This document shows positions 4,437 through 22,417 of a stretch of 22,417 nt of DNA, piece after piece (position 1 is the stretch's first letter; each line of letters begins with the position of its first letter). The position numbers and the translations under genes are program-made. The notes below the pieces were generated by a model. It made no database searches, had not been told where the DNA came from, and saw only the letters and a list, made by a program, of their open reading frames with translations. Origin of the DNA: a virus. Location: the IMG/VR virus record IMGVR_UViG_3300050821_018847, positions 1 to 22,417 of that record, one strand, 5' to 3'.

Positions 4437-7400
4437 ATGTCATTTCTAAAACAAGGTGAGTCATTGGCTAGTATTTATGTAGAAAACTCTGCTAATTGTG
4501 CTAAAATGGTTAATCCCGATATTTTAGATAATTTCAAAAAAATTGCTGCTAATCTGAAAAAAATTGCTCCCAAAGCCGAAGATTTTCTTTATTTTAGTGC
4601 CGTTATGATGCACGCTGCCGAAGCCGCTGGACTCAATGATGATGGTAGTATCAAGAGAACGGCTCGTGGTCAAAATGTGGAAGTGGGCTGGGATCAAAGT
4701 GGTGGAACTTGGCGATGGATGAGTAATGATCCTTCTATTAAACCCTACAAAAACTCTAACGGCGACATTTTTCCAGAAGAAGAACTATTAAAAGCTTATA
4801 AAAAATGGGTAGGGAAACCTCTTTGCGTTGATCATAAGTCCAGTTCAGTAGAGCATGTAAGAGGATTTATTGTTGATACTCATTACGATCGTGATTTAAA
4901 ACGAGTAATTGCCTTATGTGCTCTTGATAAAGCAGGATATCCACAATTAGCCAGACAGGTTTCGACGGGGATGTCCAATTGCGTCTCTATGGGAACTGCG
5001 GTAGGTAAGGCAATTTGTTCCGATTGTGCTCGAGTTGCCAGAACCGAAGCTGATTTTTGCGATCATATGAAGCGAAAAAGCTGCTACGGCGAAATTAATA
5101 TTGATTTAAACCCAATTGAGCTTTCTATCGTAATGAATGGGGCTGACGGAAAAGCCACTATCAAAACTATTATCGCTTCTAAAACAATTTCAGAAGCAGC
5201 TCAAAATATGAATTCTTATTTGGATAGCAAACAAGAAGAATTACAAAAATTAGCTTCTGGATTCCACGCTAATATCAATTTCGATAATGATGATGGTAAT
5301 GCTACAACTTTTAACATTAGTTCCAAAGATATCGAAACTTTCAAGCAAGATGTCAATAAAGCCATTGAAGAGTATCAAAAAATACAATCTTCTTTGTCAA
5401 ATGAAGAAAATGTTGAAAAATCTGGTAATGATCTGACATCTAATCAATTGTCGGGTGCTGAAGCAGATACTCCAACAGCCGATTTTGGATTAGCCCCGCC
5501 ACACGAAAGATATGCTTCTAATGTTGTAGAAGCGGGAACAGTTGCTGAATTACACGAGGTCACTAGGTCAATTGAAGCCAAACTCAATCAACTAAAAAAT
5601 AGTTTGGACAAGTTAGCAAACAACACTTCTACACTTTCACAGAAAACACAAGAGGAAAATATGTCAGGTACCAATATCAACAAACAAGGTTATTTTCAAG
5701 GAGCTGGCGGAGTCAATGAACCCACGCCAGGACAAGCTAAATATCCCAAAGATCCTCTTAATGAAAAACTGCGTGAGCATGAAGATAAACAAATGGTAGG
5801 CGAACCTCCATTTCCAGGCGTAGGAGCAGTTGATGGTCTTCATCCTTCTCCTTCATCTGCCGATCCTTCTGATGAACTAGAGCGAAAGAAAATGCTCGCT
5901 CGTGCAGAAGCCGAAGAACGAGCAATTCGTCGTCAAGCCATTGTTTCGTTAGCCAAGAAAAATCTCGAAGATAAAAAAGCCTATTTCCAAAATGGTCTCG
6001 AGAAAAACAATGTCAATACACCCACACCAGGGCAAGTTAAATATCCCATTGATAAACTTAATGAACAATTAAGAGATCATGAAGATAAGCAAATGGTCGG
6101 GCAAAAACCCTTCCCAGGCGTCGGGCCCGTAGATGGTATGCATCCTTCACCTTCTTCAGTTGATCCCTCAGATGAACTCAAACGAAAAGAAATGCTTCGT
6201 CGAGCCTCATTAACAGGTCGATTTATCAAAGCCTCCAATGAAGATGGCAGTCAAAATCTAGGAAAGAGTGCTTGGGAAATCTTTCTCGGCGACAAATTAG
6301 TTCTCACCGCTTCAGTTGAGGATTTATCTGGTGGTCGTTCTGATGTCTTTTATGATAGCATTGCAACCAAACCTTTCGGCGTCAAACTAATTGAAAAAGT
6401 CAAAAAAGAAGGGGCTGACAAAGTTCGTTCAACATTTGTAAAGAGTGCTCAATCTGCTCCCGCTGCTCCTCCCGCAGATGCTTCAGCTCCTCCAATGGAA
6501 GCTGCTCCGCCCGCACTTGAACCAGCAGCTGAAGATAATGGCAAATCAGGCGATCCCAAAGATAATGTCCTTGAGCTTGCCGAAAAAGCTCGCGATCTCA
6601 ATTCCGATTTAGTGGAAGGCGTCCGAGCACTCACTGGCGAACAAGCGGAAATGGGTGATGCTCCAAAAGAAGCTGCTCCAGAAATGGGAACTGCTGCCTC
6701 ATTTAGCACTGCCGCACTTACCACAATGCGTCGAGAATTAAATAGTGCTCTCGTCGGTGCAATGAAAGAAGTTATTGCCGAACTTAATGATCATCAACAA
6801 GAACTAGGAATGATTGCTGGACTTTATGATCAAGGTGCGGTTAATTCATCCAATGCAGATCAAGTTGCTGCCATTGCTCAAGATGCAGTTAATGAAACAA
6901 AATCATCAATTGCCAACGGATTTAATTTAATGACAGCGTTTGTGAAATATGCTCGCGGCACCAAAGCCATTGTTAAACGAGCGGAAATTGAGGCAGAGCT
7001 CGAAGCATTAGCCAATGAGGGAGATTCTATGACCAGTGAAAAAGATAGCAATTCTAGCGATGATCTAATGAATCTAATTCAAAACACTGACTCCGATTTA
7101 GATGCAGTCAAAGAGCTAATGGCAGACGATGTTGAGCTTGCTGATATGCCAATGGACGAGAACGAAGCAATGTTGGCAGTCAAGCCAGGCGAAGCAGTTC
7201 CCACCGACGCCCCCAAAGGCGTTCCAGTTGAGGTAATGCATGCCGAAGCTTCATTCGATACACGCGAAGGCCGAACAGCACTACGAGCCAAACTTGCTGC
7301 TGACGCTCTCGGCAAAGAAGATGATGGCGAAGTTCAAGATATGAGCAAAGCCAAGTTCAGCGATATGCTCCAAGAGGCAGATCGTCTTGCTGATGGACAA

Positions 7401-8018
7401 ACACAACTCGATGTCAAACCTTCGGATGATCTTGGATTAGTGGAAACTCTACCAGAACAAAACAAAGCCTTTATGGAAGTTGCCAAAGCTCCACCAAAGG
7501 TTCGCAAAGAAGCAGAAGCCATTCATAAACTAGTTTCACAAGGCAAACTCGATCCACAAGATCTAGATGCACTTGTAGCAGAAGGTCTCGACAAGGATGC
7601 AGTGGCTTACTGGAAGAAATATTACGGACAAACAGATGGCGGCTCAGAGTTCGCCAGTGAGCTTGTTAAAGAGCATGTCAAAGCACAACTCGAAGAACAA
7701 CTCGGTCAATATCGCGTTAAATTAGCACGAGCTTATGAATTAACCTACGAGATGGTTGATCGTGGTCTTTGCAACAGTGATCGAAGCTCCATTTCTTCAC
7801 AAGTCGATGAAGTAATGAAGTTTAATGATGAGGGTTTTGAAAGCCTCAAACGAGTTGTTGCTCGCCATGCCCCCTCAATGAAAAAAGAGGCAGGTCGTCT
7901 TCCACAAGTAGGTTCTATTGGTTCAGGAGAAATGTTTTCATCTGAATCAGCACAAGAACAAAATCTATACACTGAACTATCAGGTGCATTTTCAACTTCC
8001 ACCAAGAAAATGTTCTAA
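4437..8018 (+). CDS. Prohead maturation protease fused to scaffold-like region
   Basis: 1193 aa. Residues ~95-245 follow the herpesvirus/HK97-type prohead protease pattern: 'GKPLCVDHKSSS' with probable catalytic His133, 'HVRGFIVDTHYD', 'QVSTGMSNCVSMGT' with probable Ser184, and 'PIELSIV' at 226-232. A zinc-like insert follows the Ser strand: Cys194, Cys197, Cys208, His210 and Cys216. Residues 300-400 are coiled coil. Residues 416-490 and 513-590 are a tandem duplication ('TPGQAKYP', 'EHEDKQMVG', 'PFPGVG', 'HPSPSS'). A single domain follows (~610-670, 'GKSAWEIFLGDKLVLTASVE'), then an Ala/Pro linker (671-700) and long acidic helices to the end. Lambda gpC/Nu3 and P2 gpO similarly join protease and scaffold. 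Internal ATGs at codons 409 and 865 have good ribosome binding sites, so shorter scaffold forms are likely. Leucine codons shift from TTA/TTG towards CTN in the 3' part, as in the capsid gene. Confidence 0.82.
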   Translation: MSFLKQGESLASIYVENSANCAKMVNPDILDNFKKIAANLKKIAPKAEDFLYFSAVMMHAAEAAGLNDDGSIKRTARGQNVEVGWDQSGGTWRWMSNDPSIKPYKNSNGDIFPEEELLKAYKKWVGKPLCVDHKSSSVEHVRGFIVDTHYDRDLKRVIALCALDKAGYPQLARQVSTGMSNCVSMGTAVGKAICSDCARVARTEADFCDHMKRKSCYGEINIDLNPIELSIVMNGADGKATIKTIIASKTISEAAQNMNSYLDSKQEELQKLASGFHANINFDNDDGNATTFNISSKDIETFKQDVNKAIEEYQKIQSSLSNEENVEKSGNDLTSNQLSGAEADTPTADFGLAPPHERYASNVVEAGTVAELHEVTRSIEAKLNQLKNSLDKLANNTSTLSQKTQEENMSGTNINKQGYFQGAGGVNEPTPGQAKYPKDPLNEKLREHEDKQMVGEPPFPGVGAVDGLHPSPSSADPSDELERKKMLARAEAEERAIRRQAIVSLAKKNLEDKKAYFQNGLEKNNVNTPTPGQVKYPIDKLNEQLRDHEDKQMVGQKPFPGVGPVDGMHPSPSSVDPSDELKRKEMLRRASLTGRFIKASNEDGSQNLGKSAWEIFLGDKLVLTASVEDLSGGRSDVFYDSIATKPFGVKLIEKVKKEGADKVRSTFVKSAQSAPAAPPADASAPPMEAAPPALEPAAEDNGKSGDPKDNVLELAEKARDLNSDLVEGVRALTGEQAEMGDAPKEAAPEMGTAASFSTAALTTMRRELNSALVGAMKEVIAELNDHQQELGMIAGLYDQGAVNSSNADQVAAIAQDAVNETKSSIANGFNLMTAFVKYARGTKAIVKRAEIEAELEALANEGDSMTSEKDSNSSDDLMNLIQNTDSDLDAVKELMADDVELADMPMDENEAMLAVKPGEAVPTDAPKGVPVEVMHAEASFDTREGRTALRAKLAADALGKEDDGEVQDMSKAKFSDMLQEADRLADGQTQLDVKPSDDLGLVETLPEQNKAFMEVAKAPPKVRKEAEAIHKLVSQGKLDPQDLDALVAEGLDKDAVAYWKKYYGQTDGGSEFASELVKEHVKAQLEEQLGQYRVKLARAYELTYEMVDRGLCNSDRSSISSQVDEVMKFNDEGFESLKRVVARHAPSMKKEAGRLPQVGSIGSGEMFSSESAQEQNLYTELSGAFSTSTKKMF
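5651..5663 (+). promoter_or_regulatory. Internal ribosome binding site and in-frame start (codon 409)
   Basis: AGAGGAAA is followed 4-5 bases later by ATG 5661, in frame with the 1193-codon gene. Translation from here would give a 785-residue protein beginning MSGTNINKQGYF, starting exactly where the non-protease repeat region begins. The motif match to a ribosome binding site is better than for several full genes nearby. Use in vivo is inferred. Confidence 0.55.
5682..6206 (+). repeat. Tandem coding duplication in the scaffold region
   Basis: Two copies of a ~75-residue module, at about 5682-5906 and 5973-6206, separated by a charged helix. Shared blocks in order: 'YFQ', 'TPTPGQ' or 'EPTPGQ' then '(A/V)KYP', 'LNE.LR.HEDKQMVG', 'PFPGVG.VDG.HPSPSS.DPSDEL.RK.ML'. 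The proteins match closely while the DNA has diverged at third positions, so the duplication is old and kept by selection. Confidence 0.85.
7017..7031 (+). promoter_or_regulatory. Second internal ribosome binding site and start (codon 865)
   Basis: GAGGGAG at 7017-7023 lies 5 bases before ATG 7029, in frame. The product would be a 329-residue acidic helical protein starting MTSEKDSNSSDD, directly after a Glu/Ala-rich helix. The spacing is ideal, but Glu-Gly codons can create such a motif by chance, so the evidence is weaker than for the site at 5651. Confidence 0.4.
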
Positions 8019-9109: not shown

Positions 9110-9600
9110 TTAAACAAGCCGTTTTTGAAGATGAAATTATTAATGGGATGATGCAGGAATTACAGCTGCAAAATGTCAAAGTTGCATCCAAAAAAGAAGG
9201 CGTTGATAATTTAGTTAAAGCTGCTGATTTATTACAAGCAGCAATGGAGATTTTTGAAGAAACTGGATTAACTGCTCAAGCTGATCAAGTTCTAAATATT
9301 CTTTCTAAAATTGCTCATCAAAAAGTAGATCATCATACACAAGGATTAACCCCCGAAAAGATGGTTAAAAATCTCAAAGAACACGGCATTGTTTTTAATT
9401 TAGCCGATGATGGACAAGCCGATCATCTATTGAATGCTGATATTGAAATGCCGTTAGAAAATAGTAAAAAACCAATTAACCCCTTACTTCCCAATCAACC
9501 AGTTCCAGCTTTAAAAGATACTGCTGATTTAACCGTACAAGATGTAGCTCACGCCGAAGATTTAGAGGTGGGCGAAGAAGACTTTGAGGACGAAAAATGA
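9106..9600 (+). CDS. Helical-hairpin protein with acidic tail
   Basis: 164 aa, starting at a GTG that overlaps the previous stop (GTGA). Residues 1-65 are the paralogous helical region described for the gene before. Residues ~75-100 contain 'GLTPEKMVKNLKEHGIVFNL'. The last 25 residues are strongly acidic ('HAEDLEVGEEDFEDEK'). The stop TGA overlaps the following ATG (ATGA), a sign of translational coupling. The function is unknown; the acidic tail would suit interaction with a basic partner such as the lysine-rich protein two genes upstream. Confidence 0.7.
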   Translation: MIKQAVFEDEIINGMMQELQLQNVKVASKKEGVDNLVKAADLLQAAMEIFEETGLTAQADQVLNILSKIAHQKVDHHTQGLTPEKMVKNLKEHGIVFNLADDGQADHLLNADIEMPLENSKKPINPLLPNQPVPALKDTADLTVQDVAHAEDLEVGEEDFEDEK

Positions 9601-9639
9601 ATAAAAATCTTGGAGGACGAAAAATGAATAAAAATCTTG
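9586..9639 (+). repeat. Perfect 27-bp tandem duplication carrying RBS and start codon
   Basis: Two identical 27-bp copies (9586-9612 and 9613-9639) lie head to tail. Each holds a GAGGA ribosome binding site, six bases of spacer, ATG and the codons for MNKNL. 27 is a multiple of three, so the frame is kept and both starts (9597 and 9624) give the same protein with or without nine extra residues. Perfect identity implies a recent slippage event. Confidence 0.95.
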
Positions 9640-9905
9640 CTCGTTTGGTGGTAATTGGTCAAGTGATGGAAGAGAAATACGATCCATCTTCTCATTCCAC
9701 TGCTGATGAAGCTAATGCCGCAATTGGTGATATTGAAGAAAAATTAGAGTTTCTTAAAAATCTTCCTTGGCTCTCTGACAAAGGTGTAGAGACAGTAGTG
9801 CATTTGAGCGGAATGATATCTATTTTACATAAAGAAGTTGCTAAATCGGTAGAACAATCCCGCGATACCTTTATTCCAACGGGCGAAGAAAACGACACTT
9901 ATTAA
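9597..9905 (+). CDS. Small protein with duplicated start region, unknown function
   Basis: 102 aa from the first ATG (9597), or 93 aa from the second (9624). The second is probably the original start: the first nine residues (MNKNLGGRK) are a translation of the duplicated ribosome binding site. The body is helical ('IGDIEEKLEFLKNLPWLSDK' and 'VVHLSGMISILHKEVAKSVE') with a polar C-terminus. It closes the head-assembly block; a 124-bp gap follows. I recognise no family. Confidence 0.7.
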   Translation: MNKNLGGRKMNKNLARLVVIGQVMEEKYDPSSHSTADEANAAIGDIEEKLEFLKNLPWLSDKGVETVVHLSGMISILHKEVAKSVEQSRDTFIPTGEENDTY

Positions 9906-9959: not shown

Positions 9960-10067
9960 ATGAGACGATCATTTTGTTTTAAAACCAATTTCGAGGTATC
10001 GTTAGAAGTTTTAACTAACCATACCGATAATGGAGGCTACAATTCTTCGCTTAGTTCAAACTTCTAA
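9960..10067 (+). CDS. Possible short upstream ORF (35 aa)
   Basis: ATG 9960 follows AAAGAG and opens a 35-codon frame that ends inside the next gene, in a different frame. It reads across the left arm of the inverted repeat around the start at 10030, so translation of it would open or reshape that hairpin. There is no composition or family support, and it may be only a chance frame. Confidence 0.25.
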   Translation: MRRSFCFKTNFEVSLEVLTNHTDNGGYNSSLSSNF

Positions 10068-10069
10068 CG
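10000..10069 (+). repeat. Inverted repeat enclosing the start codon at 10030
   Basis: Left arm 10000-10018 and right arm 10051-10069 pair over 18 of 19 positions (one U-C mismatch at 10012). The 32-base loop holds ATG 10030 and a GGAGG at 10032-10036. In mRNA this is a stable stem presenting the start codon in a loop. The right arm is coding (residues 8-14). Confidence 0.8.
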
Positions 10070-10731
10070 CTATCCCTCAATCATTTATTCTCGATCCCTC
10101 TTGTGAATTTCAGGCTGGTCAAGTCGCCGAGCTTACAGTTATTGGCAATCAAGTAATGGCTACAGTGTCTAACGGAACTGCACCGTTAGGCATTATTGAT
10201 GATGTTCGAACACGAGCCTTCACCAATGTCTCTTGGAATGAAGTGGTTATTGTTCCAGCCATTGGTGTCCCTGGGCCTGGCGGAATCATCGTCACACCAG
10301 TTGAAATCAAAGCCGAATTGAGGAAACCCAATATTCTTTCCTCATCTTTTAATTCTACCGTTGATGTCTTTCTTAATCCCACTAATGGAGTAATTGCCTT
10401 TTTAGCAGGCACACAACTAAATTACGATATGTTGGGCACGGGAACACCTAATGCCATTCGAACCATCGTTAATTACACCTATCAAGTTCCTAATATTCCA
10501 GGCGATGATAGCACGGCAGGAACAGGGCGAGTGACAGTGTGGTTCAATAGAATGTTTTTTCAGGTAGATATTTATGAAACAAATCAGCAGTATCCTATTA
10601 GAGCCAATGTTTATGTCAGCGAACACGGCATCCTAACAACTCGCCGACCCAGTTTAATTCATCCAGCAGTGGGTATGGTGACTGGAGTACCTTCGCCGTT
10701 TAGTCCTTTATTAGAAGTGTTGTGGTTCTAA
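10030..10731 (+). CDS. Beta-rich virion protein, decoration-like
   Basis: 233 aa, mostly short strands, Gly/Pro turns and few charged residues, without signal peptide or membrane segment. Typical stretches are 'SCEFQAGQVAELTVIGNQVM', 'GTAPLGIIDDVRT', 'GRVTVWFNRMFFQVDIYETN' and an end in 'LEVLWF'. I associate this pattern ('TAPIGIIDD', a Trp-Phe C-terminus) with capsid-associated structural proteins of large phages, so a head-decoration or other abundant surface protein is likely; the exact role is open. The start is odd: ATG 10030 has no ribosome binding site upstream, while GGAGG lies just inside the frame, ahead of an ATT codon at 10042. Start choice or regulation by the surrounding inverted repeat is therefore uncertain. 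An 18-bp inverted repeat spans its stop codon. Confidence 0.75.
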   Translation: MEATILRLVQTSNAIPQSFILDPSCEFQAGQVAELTVIGNQVMATVSNGTAPLGIIDDVRTRAFTNVSWNEVVIVPAIGVPGPGGIIVTPVEIKAELRKPNILSSSFNSTVDVFLNPTNGVIAFLAGTQLNYDMLGTGTPNAIRTIVNYTYQVPNIPGDDSTAGTGRVTVWFNRMFFQVDIYETNQQYPIRANVYVSEHGILTTRRPSLIHPAVGMVTGVPSPFSPLLEVLWF

Positions 10732-10749
10732 TAAACGGCGAAGGTACTC
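10685..10749 (+). repeat. 18-bp perfect inverted repeat spanning the stop codon
   Basis: Arm 10685-10702 is the reverse complement of 10732-10749 without mismatch; the 29-base loop contains the stop codon (10729-10731). In RNA it is a strong hairpin. No T-run follows directly (a T-rich stretch begins about 15 bases later), so it is a poor intrinsic terminator. It may instead protect the mRNA 3' end. Alternatively the right arm is a DNA-binding copy of the gene's end placed just ahead of the endonuclease gene. Confidence 0.9.
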
Positions 10750-10786: not shown

Positions 10787-11638
10787 GTGAAAAAAATTAC
10801 ATTACCATCAGACACTATATTAGATATTATTAACAAATATCAGTCGGGATTATCTTGCTCTAAAATCGGCAAACAATATTCTTTGTCGGGGGAATATATA
10901 CGAGCACTATTGACTAAAAATAATATTAAATTGCGAGAATATCATCAAATTAATAGAAAACATATAGTTAATGAATATTTTTTCGATAAAATTGATACTG
11001 AGGAAAAAGCATATTTTCTCGGATTTTTATTTTCAGATGGTAATGTTAGTTCTCACTACAATGCTATTACTATAAAATTACAGAAAAAAGATAAACATAT
11101 TTTAACTACTTTTTCTTATCTCATTTTAAATAAAGAAAAACTACATATTAGTGAAGGTAATTATATCTTAAGGTTTAGTAGTAAGCATATGAAACAACGA
11201 TTAATAGAATTAGGTTGCGTTCCTGCCAAATCATTAATTTTACAATATCCAGTATTAGATCATAATATGCAACAACATTTTTTACGAGGTTATTTTGATG
11301 GAGATGGATCAATATATTCTTATGATAATGATTATGCAACTTGCACTATATCGACAGATGATTTTTGTCAATCCATAAAATGCATAATTTTAGATAGAGT
11401 AGGGCTTATTGGAAATATAACTAAAAGCCAACAAATGTTCGACCGTGGCAATTATATCACCTCTAATTTTCTTTTAAAAGGTAATCGACGTGTTTTAAAA
11501 TTAATGAACTGGCTCTACAAAGACGCTACCATTTATCTAACCAGAAAATACAACAAATATTTGGAATTGAAGGCGTGGTGCGATGAAGTGGATAGTCGAA
11601 CCACAAGATATTCAAAAATTACCCAACTTTCCGCCTAA
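10787..11638 (+). CDS. LAGLIDADG homing endonuclease, free-standing
   Basis: 283 aa. Residues 10-45 form a helix-turn-helix ('SCSKIGKQYSLSGEYIRALL'). Two LAGLIDADG helices follow: 'AYFLGFLFSDG' at 75-85 (acid Asp84) and 'HFLRGYFDGDG' at 164-174 (acid Asp173). Both acids are present, so the monomeric enzyme is probably active and cuts a long asymmetric site, usually in a related phage that lacks the gene. The start is GTG 10787 without a good ribosome binding site. ATTAAATTA at 10756-10764, also found in the minus-strand endonuclease promoters, may be a -10 region, but no -35 box is seen. It is inserted between structural genes and disrupts none. Mobility by homing is family knowledge; the target is not known. 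Confidence 0.93.
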   Translation: MKKITLPSDTILDIINKYQSGLSCSKIGKQYSLSGEYIRALLTKNNIKLREYHQINRKHIVNEYFFDKIDTEEKAYFLGFLFSDGNVSSHYNAITIKLQKKDKHILTTFSYLILNKEKLHISEGNYILRFSSKHMKQRLIELGCVPAKSLILQYPVLDHNMQQHFLRGYFDGDGSIYSYDNDYATCTISTDDFCQSIKCIILDRVGLIGNITKSQQMFDRGNYITSNFLLKGNRRVLKLMNWLYKDATIYLTRKYNKYLELKAWCDEVDSRTTRYSKITQLSA

Positions 11639-17775: not shown

Positions 17776-18474
17776 ATGTCTTTAAAACCATTACAAGCCG
17801 CATTACCATTAGGGCAATTTGACGGTCTTGATACAGAAGTTCTCACACTCAAAGGCGGAGAAGTCGTTACATTCACAGGGACAGTAGTTCCCGGTGACAA
17901 AGCCGCTTACGATGTTTTCGACGGTTATATTCCCCCAAGCTCAAGGGCAGTTGTTACACGCACAGTTCCTGCCGCAAGTCGTCCACTAATGCTCGCTGAC
18001 GAAGGAATAGCAGGGTACGGCACGCTATTCGGTGCAGTTGTTGGTGGCACAGTTGGTCAACAAGTCAACGGGCCCAATACCTTTACCGGTGCACTCCTCG
18101 GGCCACATACAGCCACAGGTTCTGGTAAAGTAACTTGCTGGGGTCAACCTGGCTTATATGCTATTAGTCTCGACGCTACAGACACTAATATCGCAACTGG
18201 CTTACAACCCACAAATTCAAACTGCACACCAGGTTCAGCAATTTACTGGGCAACAGCAGGAGCTACACCAGGCGTTCTAACCACACTTTCAGGCTCCAAT
18301 TCATCTGGTGCAGGAAATACAGTTGGTCGTCTCGTAGAATTCAATACAAACGGCTCACTTGTTACTACGCCAAACACATTAGTCGCGGCATTAAACTCAC
18401 CAAGCGGAAATGTGTCGAGCGTAGGTCCCAAGTCTTTCACCTACGCGACTATTTGGTTCTCACCAGTTCTCTAA
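17776..18474 (+). CDS. Beta-rich virion protein, probable abundant capsid-surface protein
   Basis: 232 aa, with an AAGGA ribosome binding site eight bases before ATG. It is almost all small and polar residues, Gly/Thr/Ala/Val-rich, with strand-turn patterns ('KGGEVVTFTGTVVPGD', 'GKVTCWGQPGLYAISLDATD', 'YATIWFSPVL'). Few Lys and no enzyme motif point to a beta-sandwich or jelly-roll-like structural protein. Codon choice is richer in C-ending codons than in the five genes before it, resembling the capsid gene, which suggests high expression. It stands alone between a gap with a hairpin and a strong terminator, as an abundantly transcribed unit would. A decoration, vertex or fibre protein are all possible. 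Confidence 0.72.
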   Translation: MSLKPLQAALPLGQFDGLDTEVLTLKGGEVVTFTGTVVPGDKAAYDVFDGYIPPSSRAVVTRTVPAASRPLMLADEGIAGYGTLFGAVVGGTVGQQVNGPNTFTGALLGPHTATGSGKVTCWGQPGLYAISLDATDTNIATGLQPTNSNCTPGSAIYWATAGATPGVLTTLSGSNSSGAGNTVGRLVEFNTNGSLVTTPNTLVAALNSPSGNVSSVGPKSFTYATIWFSPVL

Positions 18475-18516
18475 TAATTAGTTTTGACTGGGTTGTAAGC
18501 CAGTCGCGACTAATGT
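18376..18516 (+). repeat. 12-bp inverted repeat between gene end and 3' leader
   Basis: 18376-18387 within the 17776 gene is the exact reverse complement of 18505-18516 downstream of its stop. The downstream arm directly follows another small hairpin (GACTGG with CCAGTC, 18486-18505). Together with the terminator this gives the transcript a layered 3' structure. Chance cannot be excluded at this length. Confidence 0.6.
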
Positions 18517-18565: not shown

Positions 18566-19573
18566 CTAAAAGATATCACTGGACGAATTGAGTAATTGAT
18601 ATTTTTGTAAGCGATCAACCCAATCGTAAAATTCTACTAGTGTCATATCGTGTTTAGCAATATTGCACCACTTACAACAAGGCACAATATTTTCTATACT
18701 ATGATCTTTTGAACTATCTATCCGATCAATTCCGTTATAATGGTAATGACATTTATCGATAGATGATCTTGGTATATCTTTACCCGAAAGTTTTATTACG
18801 CCTTTATTACAAATATATGGATTATAATGATTAGATGATGCTATATTACAGTAATGACAAGGAAGTTGAGATAATGTATAAAATGTTTGTTTATCAATTT
18901 CCATCTTACCATAAGCTGTTATATAATGCTCGTATACTTCATTAATTGAAGTTCTTAATAATTTTTCTGGTAAATCTAATAATTGTGTAGGTGGAACGAA
19001 TATAGTGCCCACATTAATTTGGATTGAATTAATGTGTTTTAAAAAATCTTCAACCGAACGCTCCCTTTTAGCTATATTACATTTTAAACAACAAGGGGCA
19101 CAATTATCGATAGTGTAATTTTTCAAACTGTTAATTCTGTCCAATCCATTATAAGTAAAATTTCCATTTTCTTTGGCAAATTGAGACGCATTTTTTCTTG
19201 ACAAAAAATAATTGAATACATTATACGGTTTAATTCCACAATAAAAACAATTTTGCTGACTAAAATTAAACCATTCTTCAAAAGCCAAACTACATTTTTT
19301 GTCCCGATAAAGATAATTCTTCCAACATTGTCTTGCACTGGAAATGTAAGGAGAATAAATTTTGTCATCATTATTGGTAGATGATATGTTCCAATGTAAA
19401 CAACCACAGCTTTTCGTATGCCCACTTCTCAAATGAGCTCCATCATAATTTTGTTCATTTCCATCACAATCGCATTTACAACGCCATACTGCTCGTCCCT
19501 TTTTGGTTGGAGCTACGGCAATTACCAATAGTCTTCCGAATTTTTTATTTAGCAGATCGATCTTTTTTCTCAT
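18566..19573 (-). CDS. HNH homing endonuclease with two HNH-like units
   Basis: 335 aa. Residues 32-58 hold a Cys cluster ('CKCDCDGNE' and 'SCGCL') typical of the small zinc/DNA-binding head of phage HNH endonucleases. Two related units follow. Unit 1 has 'CFYCGIKP' (109-116), 'YNGLDRINS' (141-149) and 'CCLKCNIAK' (161-169). Unit 2 has 'CHYCNIAS' (239-246), 'YNGIDRIDSSKDHSIENIVP' and 'CCKWCNIAK' (299-307). Each carries the Asp-Arg variant (DRI) instead of the classical Asp-His, with the later Asn and Cys-Asn pattern kept. It ends in TAG, rare in this window. It is on the opposite strand to the structural genes, closely related to the next gene, and has its own sigma70-like promoter that places the transcript start at or near the ATG. 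Confidence 0.88.
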   Translation of the reverse strand: MRKKIDLLNKKFGRLLVIAVAPTKKGRAVWRCKCDCDGNEQNYDGAHLRSGHTKSCGCLHWNISSTNNDDKIYSPYISSARQCWKNYLYRDKKCSLAFEEWFNFSQQNCFYCGIKPYNVFNYFLSRKNASQFAKENGNFTYNGLDRINSLKNYTIDNCAPCCLKCNIAKRERSVEDFLKHINSIQINVGTIFVPPTQLLDLPEKLLRTSINEVYEHYITAYGKMEIDKQTFYTLSQLPCHYCNIASSNHYNPYICNKGVIKLSGKDIPRSSIDKCHYHYNGIDRIDSSKDHSIENIVPCCKWCNIAKHDMTLVEFYDWVDRLQKYQLLNSSSDIF

Positions 19574-19633: not shown

Positions 19634-20587
19634 TCATCCCGCATACATCATTTTTTGATATTTTTGCAGACGATCAATCCATCCCCCAAACTCTCGCACA
19701 CTCAATTCTCCCTTGCTAATATTACACCATTTACAGCAAGGCACTATATTTTCCATTCGATGATCCAACTTACTATCAATTCGATCAACACCATTATATT
19801 TCCATTGCTTACCATTACTATTTCTTACATTGCAATAAAAACATTTCATTTGTGAGTAAGTATAAAAAATTTGCAAATCTACCTCCATCTTTCCATAATT
19901 TTGCAGATAATAAGAATAAGCTCGTTTAATATCTGGCAAATGAGAATGTTTTTCTGGCAATAATAGTAATTTAGGAACAATAAATGGTTTCAACAAGCAT
20001 TCTAATTTAATGGAGCTAATATGAATAATAAAATCCTCCACCGATCTATTGTGTTTAGCTCTATTACATACCCAACAGCACGCAACAATATTATCAATGG
20101 AGTGATGTTTGGAGCTATCAATTCGATCCAGTCCATTATAACAGAAATTACCTTCATTAATTGCTCGTGATGATGCCCTTATTTTTCCAACAAAAACATT
20201 AAAAGTATTAGATGGTTCAATTCCACAATAATGACAATTTTTCTGGCAAACATCATACCATTGTTCGAAAGTTAAAGTGCATTGTCGATCCATATTTAAA
20301 TAATTTCTCCAAGAGGATCTGGCAGTGGAAATAGTTGGAGAATAAATAGTGTTGATTTGATGTGCTTTTTTGATGTTAATGAGTGAATTTTCGAGAGATA
20401 AACAGCCACAAGATTGTCTTAATTTTCTATTTAATCTATTGGCATCTACTTCTAATTCATTTCCGCAATCACATTTACACCACCAATGAGAACGATGATT
20501 TTTACTTTGCGTATAATGAAGGACTACTAATCTGCCAAATCGTTTATTAGCTAGATTTTTAATTTTGGGATTGGTTATTTGAGCCAT
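19634..20587 (-). CDS. HNH homing endonuclease, paralogue of the adjacent HNH gene
   Basis: 317 aa from ATG 20587, which lies two bases after the GIY-YIG stop; an upstream TTG at 20608 is possible but less likely. It has the same plan as its neighbour: N-terminal 'WWCKCDCGNE' and 'SCGCLSLEN', then two units with 'CHYCGIEP'/'YNGLDRIDSSKHHSIDNI'/'CNRAK' and 'CFYCNVRN'/'YNGVDRIDSKLDHRMENI'/'CCKWCNISK'. The connector 'YGKMEVDLQIFYTYSQ' corresponds to 'YGKMEIDKQTFYTLSQ' in the neighbour. The two genes therefore derive from one double-HNH ancestor by gene duplication or repeated invasion. It is probably co-transcribed with the GIY-YIG gene. Confidence 0.87.
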   Translation of the reverse strand: MAQITNPKIKNLANKRFGRLVVLHYTQSKNHRSHWWCKCDCGNELEVDANRLNRKLRQSCGCLSLENSLINIKKAHQINTIYSPTISTARSSWRNYLNMDRQCTLTFEQWYDVCQKNCHYCGIEPSNTFNVFVGKIRASSRAINEGNFCYNGLDRIDSSKHHSIDNIVACCWVCNRAKHNRSVEDFIIHISSIKLECLLKPFIVPKLLLLPEKHSHLPDIKRAYSYYLQNYGKMEVDLQIFYTYSQMKCFYCNVRNSNGKQWKYNGVDRIDSKLDHRMENIVPCCKWCNISKGELSVREFGGWIDRLQKYQKMMYAG

Positions 20588-20589
20588 TA

Positions 20590-21321
20590 TTATTTTACCC
20601 AACTCCAAGAACGACCATTTTTAATGCCTCTAACAGTAGTCCGAGAAATATCAAACTTAATTGCTAAATCTTTTGTTTTCACTCCCTCATTTGCTAATTT
20701 TCGTAATTCTATCACTTTTTCTTCGGTTAAAATAGAGTTATTATTTTTAGAACCCAATTTTGCATTACTCATTTTTTGTTTGGCTTCTTTATTCATACCA
20801 TTTTTAGAAGGATTATTGGTTTTATTTCTAATTTTTAATAGCTTACAATGTCCGCAATCTGGTTTATGTTTTCTACCAACATTAATTGTGTGTCCTAACA
20901 TCGCTTGTCTTCGATTTTCTTTCCATTCTTCGGTATGTTTGGCTGGAATTATTTCTCCACTGGCAATTTTTTCTAATCTTTGCTCCGACATTAATTTTCT
21001 TGTTTCATCAGTATGTTTATATCCACTAATGCCATCTCCACCTTCCGTTGCATTATATAAAATTGCTCCAAGGTTTCGATAATAGGAAATCCAAAATATC
21101 TCTGCTTCATTTAATTGATCTTCTTTTTCTAATTCATCAACTACTATCATTTCAAAGTTTTCAATACCGTGTTTTAAAATAGCGTATTGAATTGGATATT
21201 TATTGTAAAATGGCGGCAGGTATTCATTCCATCTTCTTTGTTGATCAATAGTTTTTCCGACATATATTTTACCATTTTTTTTATTGTACATTAAATATAT
21301 TATTGGTTTTATAATTTTCAT
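20590..21321 (-). CDS. GIY-YIG homing endonuclease (I-TevI/Seg-like)
   Basis: 243 aa. Catalytic domain 1-95: 'IIYLMYNKKNGKIYVGKT' (GIY and YIG strands as IYL and YVG), Arg29/30, probable catalytic Glu74 in 'LNEAEIFWISYY', and 'YNATEGGDG' (89-97). DNA-binding part: a NUMOD3-type 'GYKHTDETRKLMSEQ' (100-114), a possible short zinc element ('CGHC', 156-159), a second NUMOD3-like 'NKEAKQKMSNAKLGSKN', and a C-terminal helix-turn-helix ('TKDLAIKFDISRTTVRGIKN'). An AAAGGA ribosome binding site precedes ATG 21321. It is the first gene of the minus-strand cassette and lies divergent to the capsid gene. Free-standing relatives (Seg proteins, MobE) cut neighbouring genes of competing phages; the nearest candidate target here is the capsid gene. 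Confidence 0.92.
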   Translation of the reverse strand: MKIIKPIIYLMYNKKNGKIYVGKTIDQQRRWNEYLPPFYNKYPIQYAILKHGIENFEMIVVDELEKEDQLNEAEIFWISYYRNLGAILYNATEGGDGISGYKHTDETRKLMSEQRLEKIASGEIIPAKHTEEWKENRRQAMLGHTINVGRKHKPDCGHCKLLKIRNKTNNPSKNGMNKEAKQKMSNAKLGSKNNNSILTEEKVIELRKLANEGVKTKDLAIKFDISRTTVRGIKNGRSWSWVK

Positions 21322-21343: not shown

Positions 21344-21366
21344 TATCACGGTCATATACGGGTAGC
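21344..21366 (-). repeat. 23-bp inverted copy of a capsid-gene segment, possible operator
   Basis: This segment is the exact reverse complement of 21816-21838 in the capsid gene (23 of 23). On the minus strand it reads as capsid sense sequence (GCTACCCGTATATGACCGTG...) and lies about 4-26 bases after the predicted start of the endonuclease transcript. Flanking bases do not match. A protein bound here would block the endonuclease promoter region. Confidence 0.9.
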
Positions 21367-21376
21367 ACATCTTGCT

Positions 21377-21405
21377 AATTTAATCATCGATCTTTTTGTT
21401 GTCAA
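21377..21405 (-). promoter_or_regulatory. Sigma70-like promoter of the GIY-YIG/HNH cassette
   Basis: On the minus strand: TTGACA (21405-21400), 17 bases, TAAATT (21382-21377) within GATTAAATTA. This is the best promoter match in the window. The transcript start is expected near 21370. The -35 box overlaps that of the capsid promoter on the other strand. Confidence 0.7.
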
Positions 21406-21427
21406 GGGCGTCGAATTATTTTAAAAT
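21399..21427 (+). promoter_or_regulatory. Sigma70-like promoter ahead of the capsid gene
   Basis: TTGTCA (21399-21404), 17 bases, TAAAAT (21422-21427), each five of six against consensus. The start would be near 21434, giving a leader of about 90 bases. The -35 box is shared back to back with the endonuclease promoter, so the two probably cannot be occupied together. Confidence 0.55.
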
Positions 21428-21469
21428 ATGGGAATAATTTTATATTTGATCATCGTGTAAGGAGTTTTT

Positions 21470-21526
21470 TTGCACGAGCTGGCATTTTCGCTGGCAAACC
21501 TTTCCCCATATGGAGATACTAAATGA
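21470..21526 (+). CDS. Possible 18-aa leader peptide of the capsid gene
   Basis: AAGGAG at 21459-21464 is followed five bases later by TTG and 18 codons (LHELAFSLANLSPYGDTK). The TGA stop overlaps the capsid ATG (ATGA), the arrangement of translational coupling. The motif is a better ribosome binding site than the GGAG directly before the capsid ATG. A TTG start and the small size keep this tentative. Confidence 0.35.
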   Translation: MHELAFSLANLSPYGDTK

Positions 21527-22417
21527 ATATGTTTAACTCAAAAGGTGAGCTAAACGCGAGCTCATTAAAGGATAGCTTACAGAATATCCTTAAATTCGCG
21601 TCAATTCTTGAGGAAAATACACCCTCAAATCTTGGTCTCGCTGGCCAACCTTCACTTTCAGATGACCGACGTGACGATCTAATCGCACGAGCAATTTCTA
21701 CAAGCGATGGCAAAGTTGCATTAGCACAAGCAATGGCTAATCCAATCCGTAGAAATCTCGATTATCATGGGATCGCTCGTAGGGCATTAGTGGTTGATCC
21801 ATTACCTCAAGGGGCGCTACCCGTATATGACCGTGATATCGATGTTGCCGCAGTTGTTATTTCAAGCAACGGTACAGGTCCCGAGAGCCGCGTTTTCGGT
21901 GATCGCGTAACTGTTCCCGAGTTTGAAATTTTCGCCAATCCAACAGTTCGTATTGCCGAAGTCAAACGACGCCGCTTCAATGTAATTGACAGAGCAGTTC
22001 AAAAGGCTCGTCAAGAGATCATGGCACAAGAAGATGCCAACGTTTTCGCAGCTTTAGACGCAGCAGCTTCAGTTGAGAATACACTAACTGACATTGCCGA
22101 CGCTGGACTTCTAAAACGAGATCTAGTCGAAATCAAACAACAAATTGATCGTTGGGACCTAGTAACGACCAAATATTTCATGAATATCAATGAATTCACC
22201 GATATCCTCAAATGGGGTTCTGGTGGTGGTCAAGGCGTTGGCGGCGGCGATTTCGATCCCGTGACAATGCGAGAAGTTCTACAAACAGGGCTTTATGCTC
22301 ACATTTGGGGAACTGACATTATGGTATCAAAGATTGTTCCACCAGGGACTGTTTATGGTGCTTCAGATCCAGAGTTCGTTGGAGTTATGCCAGTCAGACA
22401 GGACATCGAAGTTTTAC
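21523..22417 (+). CDS. Major capsid protein, 3' end outside the window
   Basis: 298 complete codons are visible from ATG 21523 (ATG 21529 is an alternative), with GGAG seven bases upstream. A variable N-terminus (1-80) is followed by 'NPIRRNLDYHGIARRALVVD', 'PLPQGALPVYDRDIDVAAVV', 'ESRVFGDRVTVPEFEIFANP', a charged long helix ('VIDRAVQKARQEIMAQEDAN') and 'TTKYFMNINEFTDILKWGSG'. This order (N-arm, extended loop, spine helix, then P-domain and A-domain strands) fits HK97-fold capsid proteins of large phages. The N-terminal ~50 residues may be cut by the protease encoded at 4437. C-rich codon choice fits very high expression. Codons 98-106 are the segment copied upstream of the endonuclease gene. 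Confidence 0.87.
   Translation, partial: MNMFNSKGELNASSLKDSLQNILKFASILEENTPSNLGLAGQPSLSDDRRDDLIARAISTSDGKVALAQAMANPIRRNLDYHGIARRALVVDPLPQGALPVYDRDIDVAAVVISSNGTGPESRVFGDRVTVPEFEIFANPTVRIAEVKRRRFNVIDRAVQKARQEIMAQEDANVFAALDAAASVENTLTDIADAGLLKRDLVEIKQQIDRWDLVTTKYFMNINEFTDILKWGSGGGQGVGGGDFDPVTMREVLQTGLYAHIWGTDIMVSKIVPPGTVYGASDPEFVGVMPVRQDIEVL

What the first reader, a model, noticed from the sequence alone, without database searches (positions are those of the whole stretch)
21344..21838. Endonuclease leader carries a 23-bp perfect copy of the capsid gene: candidate homing site and self-repression operator
Seen: 21344-21366 is an exact reverse complement of 21816-21838. The copy sits at about +4 to +26 of the predicted GIY-YIG mRNA, and flanks do not match. 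Known: the GIY-YIG enzyme I-TevI represses its own gene by binding an operator that resembles its homing site but is poorly cut. Inferred: this enzyme recognises capsid codons 98-106 (a conserved 'LPVYDRD' stretch) in rival phages and uses the leader copy as operator. Its own capsid gene would need protection by a missing cleavage motif or sequence difference. This would couple capsid-targeted phage competition with autoregulation.
Basis: partly seen in the sequence, partly recalled or inferred. Interest (0 to 1): 0.82.

Follow-up and report, generated by a model that had tools for sequence, protein, structure and literature searches.

The report
Capsid-gene copy inside nuclease-gene leader
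In a giant phage related to Bacillus phage G, the start of a DNA-cutting 'homing' gene holds an exact upside-down 23-letter copy of the capsid-gene stretch that this nuclease probably attacks; the copy is real, but it looks at least as much like a repair scar as like the self-control switch first proposed.

Summary
Confirmed: 21344-21366 is an exact 23-bp reverse complement of 21816-21838. Chance expectation is about 1e-5, and a predicted promoter places the copy at about +4 to +27 of the GIY-YIG mRNA. Capsid codons 97-104 are the longest run of rare codons (8) in 63 related capsid genes. The next best match to this stretch is L100, which also carries this nuclease family (truncated) although it ranks 46th of 62 in capsid similarity elsewhere. 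So the inference 'this enzyme's target lies here' gains support. The operator inference does not. The leader matches only the phage's own recoded capsid (relatives match 11-18/23). The orthologue in L084 has no capsid-like leader; instead a 28-nt inverted copy of another capsid stretch sits at its 3' end. Inverted near-exact copies of neighbour genes also mark HNH and LAGLIDADG gene borders. Best reading: a recent inverted templated copy of the recoded target segment, made at a nuclease-cassette border; operator use is possible but untested. Independent support that GIY-YIG leaders can mimic targets: nine HD-gene-linked GIY-YIG leaders resemble HD-motif DNA. New variant of a known kind; interest about 0.5.

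The parts
21344..21366 (-). 23-bp copy in the 5' leader of the GIY-YIG gene (same sense as the capsid gene when read along the nuclease mRNA)
   Evidence: exact reverse complement of 21816-21838; not expected by chance
21816..21838 (+). source arm: capsid codons 98-106 (ALPVYDRDI), inside a run of 8 rare codons (97-104)
20590..21321 (-). GIY-YIG homing endonuclease gene, 243 aa, with C-terminal HTH-like region
   Evidence: Pfam GIY-YIG 2.4e-11, HTH_7 3.3e-4 (below Pfam cut-off); PHROG 314 homing endonuclease 1.3e-26; I-TevI catalytic domain 1mk0 E=1.6e-4
21377..21405 (-). predicted promoter of the GIY-YIG gene: TTGACA, 17 nt, TAAATT
   Evidence: consensus match only
21399..21427 (+). divergent overlapping promoter-like site toward the capsid gene (TTGTCA, 17 nt, TAAAAT)
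   Evidence: consensus match only
21523..22416 (+). major capsid protein gene, runs off the window end
   Evidence: PHROG 2522 major head protein 4.2e-66; 56% aa identity to Bacillus phage G gp27
18566..19573 (-). HNH / endonuclease VII-like gene
   Evidence: PHROG 1035 5.8e-27
19634..20608 (-). HNH / endonuclease VII-like gene
   Evidence: PHROG 1035 2.9e-29, Pfam HNH 2.4e-4
17776..18474 (+). gene left of the capsid gene, in the place of phage G gp26 (capsid decoration)
   Evidence: conserved next to the capsid gene in relatives; phage G order
18489..18509 (+). second inverted copy: 20/21 of 18191-18211 in gene 17776-18474, 57 nt from the HNH gene end
10732..10749 (+). third inverted copy: 18/18 of 10685-10702 (end of gene 10030-10731), 38 nt upstream of the LAGLIDADG gene 10787-11638

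Best explanation
The free-standing GIY-YIG homing cassette upstream of the capsid gene most likely attacks the 5' part of the capsid gene around codons 97-106. Carriers tend to keep a recoded version of that stretch. The leader sequence is a recent inverted templated copy of this phage's own recoded stretch, written into the cassette border by template switching (a polymerase briefly copying the opposite strand) during break repair or replication across the cassette. Shown: the exact inverted copy, the recoding and its tracking with this nuclease family in two of three carriers, the absence of flanking homology, and the recurrence of inverted neighbour-gene copies at nuclease-gene borders. Inferred: that the recoding is immunity to cleavage, that repair made the copy, and that any operator role came later or does not exist.
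For: Inverted score 23 against a control maximum of 17 at that spacing in 2.08 Mb. No flank homology, so it is a discrete insert. The leader equals its own recoded capsid, while 62 relatives match 11-18/23 and the family capsid profile fits the leader no better than shuffled DNA. The three mid-range (200-1200 nt) inverted pairs of score 18 or more are all at nuclease borders: window GIY-YIG, window HNH, L084 GIY-YIG. About six of nine significant short- and mid-range pairs lie within about 60 nt of a nuclease gene end. L084, seen in three separate contigs, copies a different capsid stretch at the nuclease 3' end, 25/28. Recoding: run of 8 rare codons at 97-104, p=0.0017 by permutation; L100 is best at the site (18/23) but 46th of 62 elsewhere. 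Carriers have a diverged capsid 5' third, permutation p=0.0006.
Against: No ancestor of this leader without the copy is available at high identity; the nearest orthologue is 56% aa. The template switch itself is not seen. The copy lies exactly between -10 and the start codon, which suits an operator. The enrichment at nuclease borders was noticed after looking, and nuclease calling was incomplete. The third GIY-YIG carrier (L084) is not recoded at this site. Published template switching favours short spacers (PMC8604942); here the spacer is 449 nt.
Confidence: 0.5

Rival explanations
1. I-TevI-like operator: the GIY-YIG enzyme binds the leader copy, blocks its own promoter, and cuts the matching capsid site in rivals; its own capsid is bound but not cut.
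For: Leader position about +4 to +27; the source stretch is the one recoded in carriers; catalytic domain closest to I-TevI in the PDB; I-TevI, II and III operators resemble their homing sites (15/20 for I-TevI; PMC2988022); nine HD-linked GIY-YIG leaders mimic the HD motif of the neighbour gene (MWU p=5e-7, including L363, which was not used to build the profile).
Against: Orthologue leaders in L084 and L100 show no capsid resemblance. The copy matches the presumably immune version exactly, rivals only 11-18/23. Comparable copies sit at 3' ends (L084) and at HNH and LAGLIDADG borders.
Confidence: 0.3
2. RNA-level control: the arms pair in a transcript and affect capsid or nuclease expression.
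For: Folded as one plus-strand RNA the arms form a full helix (z = -6.5).
Against: Capsid transcripts from the predicted proximal promoter (21399-21427) start after the leader arm, and the nuclease mRNA carries the copy in the same sense as the capsid mRNA, so the two mRNAs cannot pair. Only antisense read-through RNA would hold both arms. The nuclease leader alone has no unusual fold (z 0.4).
Confidence: 0.08
3. Arm homogenisation: an older imperfect operator in the leader and the capsid site were made identical by inverted-repeat template switching, so the leader wrote its version into the capsid gene as an 8-codon patch.
For: The rare-codon block (codons 97-104) nearly coincides with the copied block (codons 98-106) and ends abruptly. 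Template switching homogenises inverted-repeat arms and changes up to five neighbouring residues (PMC8604942).
Against: Most changes are synonymous and some are shared with L100, which fits stepwise change or exchange within capsid genes better than import from a non-coding leader. The spacer is long.
Confidence: 0.1
4. Chance or assembly artefact.
For: Only one assembly of this phage is held.
Against: Expected about 1e-5; an analogous copy in L084 appears in three separate contigs.
Confidence: 0.02

Closest known systems
I-TevI autorepression (phage T4 td intron)
   Same: GIY-YIG nuclease; sequence resembling the target lies in the promoter/leader of its own gene (PMC2988022)
   Different: I-TevI is intron-encoded with a 15/20 operator over a late promoter; here the gene is free-standing, the match is 23/23 and lies downstream of the predicted -10, and nearby orthologues lack it; binding and repression untested
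Free-standing phage homing endonucleases beside the gene they target (T4 Seg/Mob type, from general knowledge; HEGs near essential genes, PMC10448857)
   Same: Nuclease genes sit beside the capsid gene on the opposite strand; many relatives have empty sites; carriers show capsid 5' divergence
   Different: Adds a near-exact inverted copy of the neighbour gene at the cassette border
gp210 of phage PhiPA3 (nuclease-based interference between jumbo phages, PMC11620839)
   Same: Jumbo-phage homing nuclease acting on a rival's gene needed for progeny
   Different: gp210 is an intron-encoded HNH enzyme with a tested target; here target and competition are inferred
Inverted-repeat template switching / quasipalindrome mutation (PMC8604942)
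   Same: Exact short inverted copies made from nearby DNA
   Different: Spacers known for such events are mostly short; here 449 nt and tied to nuclease borders

Membership tests
I-TevI-type self-repressing GIY-YIG endonuclease | GIY-YIG catalytic domain | tested here: met
   Pfam 2.4e-11; I-TevI domain in PDB, E=1.6e-4
I-TevI-type self-repressing GIY-YIG endonuclease | C-terminal helix-turn-helix DNA-binding region | tested here: inconclusive
   HTH_7 3.3e-4, 21.2 bits against a cut-off of 23.8
I-TevI-type self-repressing GIY-YIG endonuclease | Target-like sequence in the promoter/leader | tested here: met
   23/23 copy, about +4 to +27 of a predicted promoter; that the capsid stretch is the target is inferred
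I-TevI-type self-repressing GIY-YIG endonuclease | Element present in orthologous nuclease genes | tested here: not met
   L084 and L100 leaders show no capsid resemblance
I-TevI-type self-repressing GIY-YIG endonuclease | Enzyme binds the element and represses transcription | not testable with these tools
   needs binding and reporter assays
I-TevI-type self-repressing GIY-YIG endonuclease | Encoded in a group I intron | tested here: not met
   no Rfam match in the window; gene is free-standing between two genes
Free-standing phage homing endonuclease | Present/absent at one site among relatives | tested here: met
   3 GIY-YIG and 9 HNH carriers, many empty sites
Free-standing phage homing endonuclease | Co-conversion signature in the neighbouring target gene | tested here: met
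   capsid 5' third diverged in carriers, permutation p=0.0006; indirect
Free-standing phage homing endonuclease | Cleavage of the neighbour gene in non-carriers | not testable with these tools
   needs cleavage mapping
Template-switch inverted duplication | Exact inverted copy above chance, flanks unmatched | tested here: met
Template-switch inverted duplication | Close relative with the unmodified ancestral sequence | tested here: inconclusive
   only L084 (56% aa) has a comparable leader, and it lacks the copy

The most novel reading that the evidence does not exclude
The leader copy is at once an operator for the nuclease and a template that can rewrite the capsid target through inverted-repeat template switching, so the homing cassette carries its own immunity patch for the gene it attacks.
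Probability: 0.07. Interest if true: 0.8.

Novelty: new variant of a known kind. Interest (0 to 1): 0.5.

Why it matters
If the copied stretch is the target, sequence alone would name the site that a jumbo-phage homing nuclease attacks in the capsid gene and show how carriers escape it. Inverted neighbour-gene copies at nuclease borders may be a readable footprint of past homing and repair. The HD-linked family shows that target-like leaders occur outside introns, so I-TevI-style self-repression may be a wider rule that can be tested in laboratory phages.

Tried and rejected
Exact 23-mer search of viral contigs: no other hit. GIY-YIG relatives in bacterial genomes: only distant ones. An older, longer copy: flanks do not extend. 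Similar recoding at the other inverted-copy source (gene 17776, site 18191): not strong. Target-like leader in L204: a coding repeat, discounted. Direct repeats flanking other GIY-YIG genes (L291, L305, L321): another kind of feature, and with the looser scoring chance controls reach 18. Pairwise leader-to-own-HD-gene alignment alone is clearly significant in only 2 of 8; the profile test was needed. HNH-carrier leaders show no capsid resemblance. RNA pairing between the two mRNAs is excluded by sense. Group I intron: none found. No structure prediction was run, since it would not show DNA binding.

Full report
Setting. The window is one viral contig of 22,417 bp from the late-gene region of a jumbo phage related to Bacillus phage G. 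Its capsid protein is about 90% identical in amino acids to IMG/VR relatives and 56% to phage G gp27. Between the gene at 17776-18474 and the capsid gene lie three minus-strand nuclease genes: two HNH/endonuclease VII-like and one GIY-YIG. A LAGLIDADG gene lies at 10787-11638.

Observation. 21344-21366 and 21816-21838 are exact reverse complements, extending ungapped to 28/31. About 1e-5 such matches are expected by chance. In 2.08 Mb of DNA from the same phage family the pair scores 23, whereas reverse-only and complement-only controls never pass 17 at spacers of 200-1200 nt. The predicted promoter TTGACA-17-TAAATT puts the copy at about +4 to +27. The flanks do not match.

The capsid arm is recoded. 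Against 62 related capsid genes, codons 97-104 show the sharpest local drop in identity (0.53 against 0.84 among relatives). All eight codons are rare at their positions; this is the longest such run in the set, and other runs in this gene are at most 3 (permutation p=0.0017). The next best match to the stretch is L100 (18/23), the only other capsid with a long rare run there (6). L100 also carries a member of this GIY-YIG family (truncated) upstream of the capsid gene, yet is 46th of 62 in identity elsewhere. So the recoding goes with this nuclease rather than with capsid ancestry, in two of three carriers; L084 is near consensus at this site. Nuclease genes sit 120-200 bp upstream of the capsid gene on the minus strand, and many relatives have an empty site. 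Carriers as a group have a diverged capsid 5' third (permutation p=0.0006). Both facts fit homing into the 5' part of the capsid gene. Immunity to cleavage is inferred.

The leader copy matches its own capsid only. Relatives match it at 11-18 of 23 positions, and the family capsid profile scores this leader no better than shuffled leaders. The orthologue in L084 (56% identical, same place) has no capsid-like leader; a 28-nt inverted copy (25/28) of another capsid stretch, codons 52-61, lies at its 3' end. L100 has none.

Inverted copies recur at nuclease borders. In this window 18489-18509 copies the neighbour gene in inverse (20/21) beside an HNH gene, and 10732-10749 copies the end of the preceding gene (18/18) just before the LAGLIDADG gene. 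L270 has a 24/24 case beside a LAGLIDADG gene. About six of nine significant pairs with spacers under 1200 nt lie within about 60 nt of a nuclease gene end. This was noticed after the fact, and nuclease calling is incomplete. It suggests a DNA-level process shared by three nuclease types, not a protein-specific operator.

Evidence on the other side. I-TevI binds an operator with 15/20 identity to its homing site (PMC2988022). A leader scan led to a second GIY-YIG family next to HD-domain genes. The nine distinct HD-linked leaders carry a stretch resembling the HD-motif DNA ([L/F]HD[L/I]IED) of the HD genes, in either orientation; L296 is the weakest. A profile built from the HD genes separates them from 98 other GIY-YIG leaders (p=5e-7), and L363 was not used for the profile. 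Leader mimicry of targets therefore occurs in free-standing phage GIY-YIG genes. Those copies are imperfect and conserved; the window's copy is exact and not conserved.

Weighing. The origin as an inverted templated copy explains exactness, lack of flanks, identity to the recoded version, inverse orientation, the L084 case and the HNH and LAGLIDADG cases. The operator model explains leader position and precedent. I give the first 0.5 and the second 0.3; both may be true in sequence. RNA pairing is weak: the mRNAs from the predicted promoters carry the copy in the same sense, or not at all.

Limits.

Noticed in passing
L276-L284, L296/L297, L363 (leaders directly upstream of GIY-YIG start): A GIY-YIG family sits next to HD-domain genes; nine distinct leaders hold a ~24-nt stretch resembling the HD catalytic-motif DNA, in either orientation.
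   Followed up: yes
window 18191-18211 / 18489-18509: 20/21 inverted copy of the capsid-neighbour gene beside the HNH gene; the copy itself also forms part of a small hairpin.
   Followed up: partly
window 10685-10702 / 10732-10749 and 10000-10018 / 10051-10069: Inverted repeats at the 3' and 5' ends of gene 10030-10731, the first just upstream of the LAGLIDADG gene.
   Followed up: partly
L084 5098-5125 / 6156-6183: 28-nt, 89% inverted copy of capsid codons 52-61 overlapping the stop of the GIY-YIG gene; seen in three contigs.
   Followed up: yes
L270 1253-1276 / 1372-1395: 24/24 inverted copy 19 nt after a LAGLIDADG gene stop.
   Followed up: partly
capsid codons 52-62 in L051, L080, L081, L083, L091, L086, window, L100: Second recoded capsid stretch in carriers of an upstream nuclease; possible further cleavage site.
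   Followed up: partly
window 9582-9635: 27-nt tandem duplication (26/27) spanning a ribosome site and start codon, giving two in-frame starts for ORF 9597-9905.
   Followed up: no
window 5712-5905 / 6012-6205: 194-nt direct repeat (75%) inside the 1193-aa gene at 4437-8018.
   Followed up: no
L100 1857-1872 / 2585-2600: 16-nt stretch encoding NPLGQ shared in frame by an HNH nuclease gene and the start of the neighbouring gene on the opposite strand.
   Followed up: no
L305 (-84 and +657 of the GIY-YIG start): 23-nt direct repeats (22/23) flank a GIY-YIG gene, like duplicated insertion ends.
   Followed up: no
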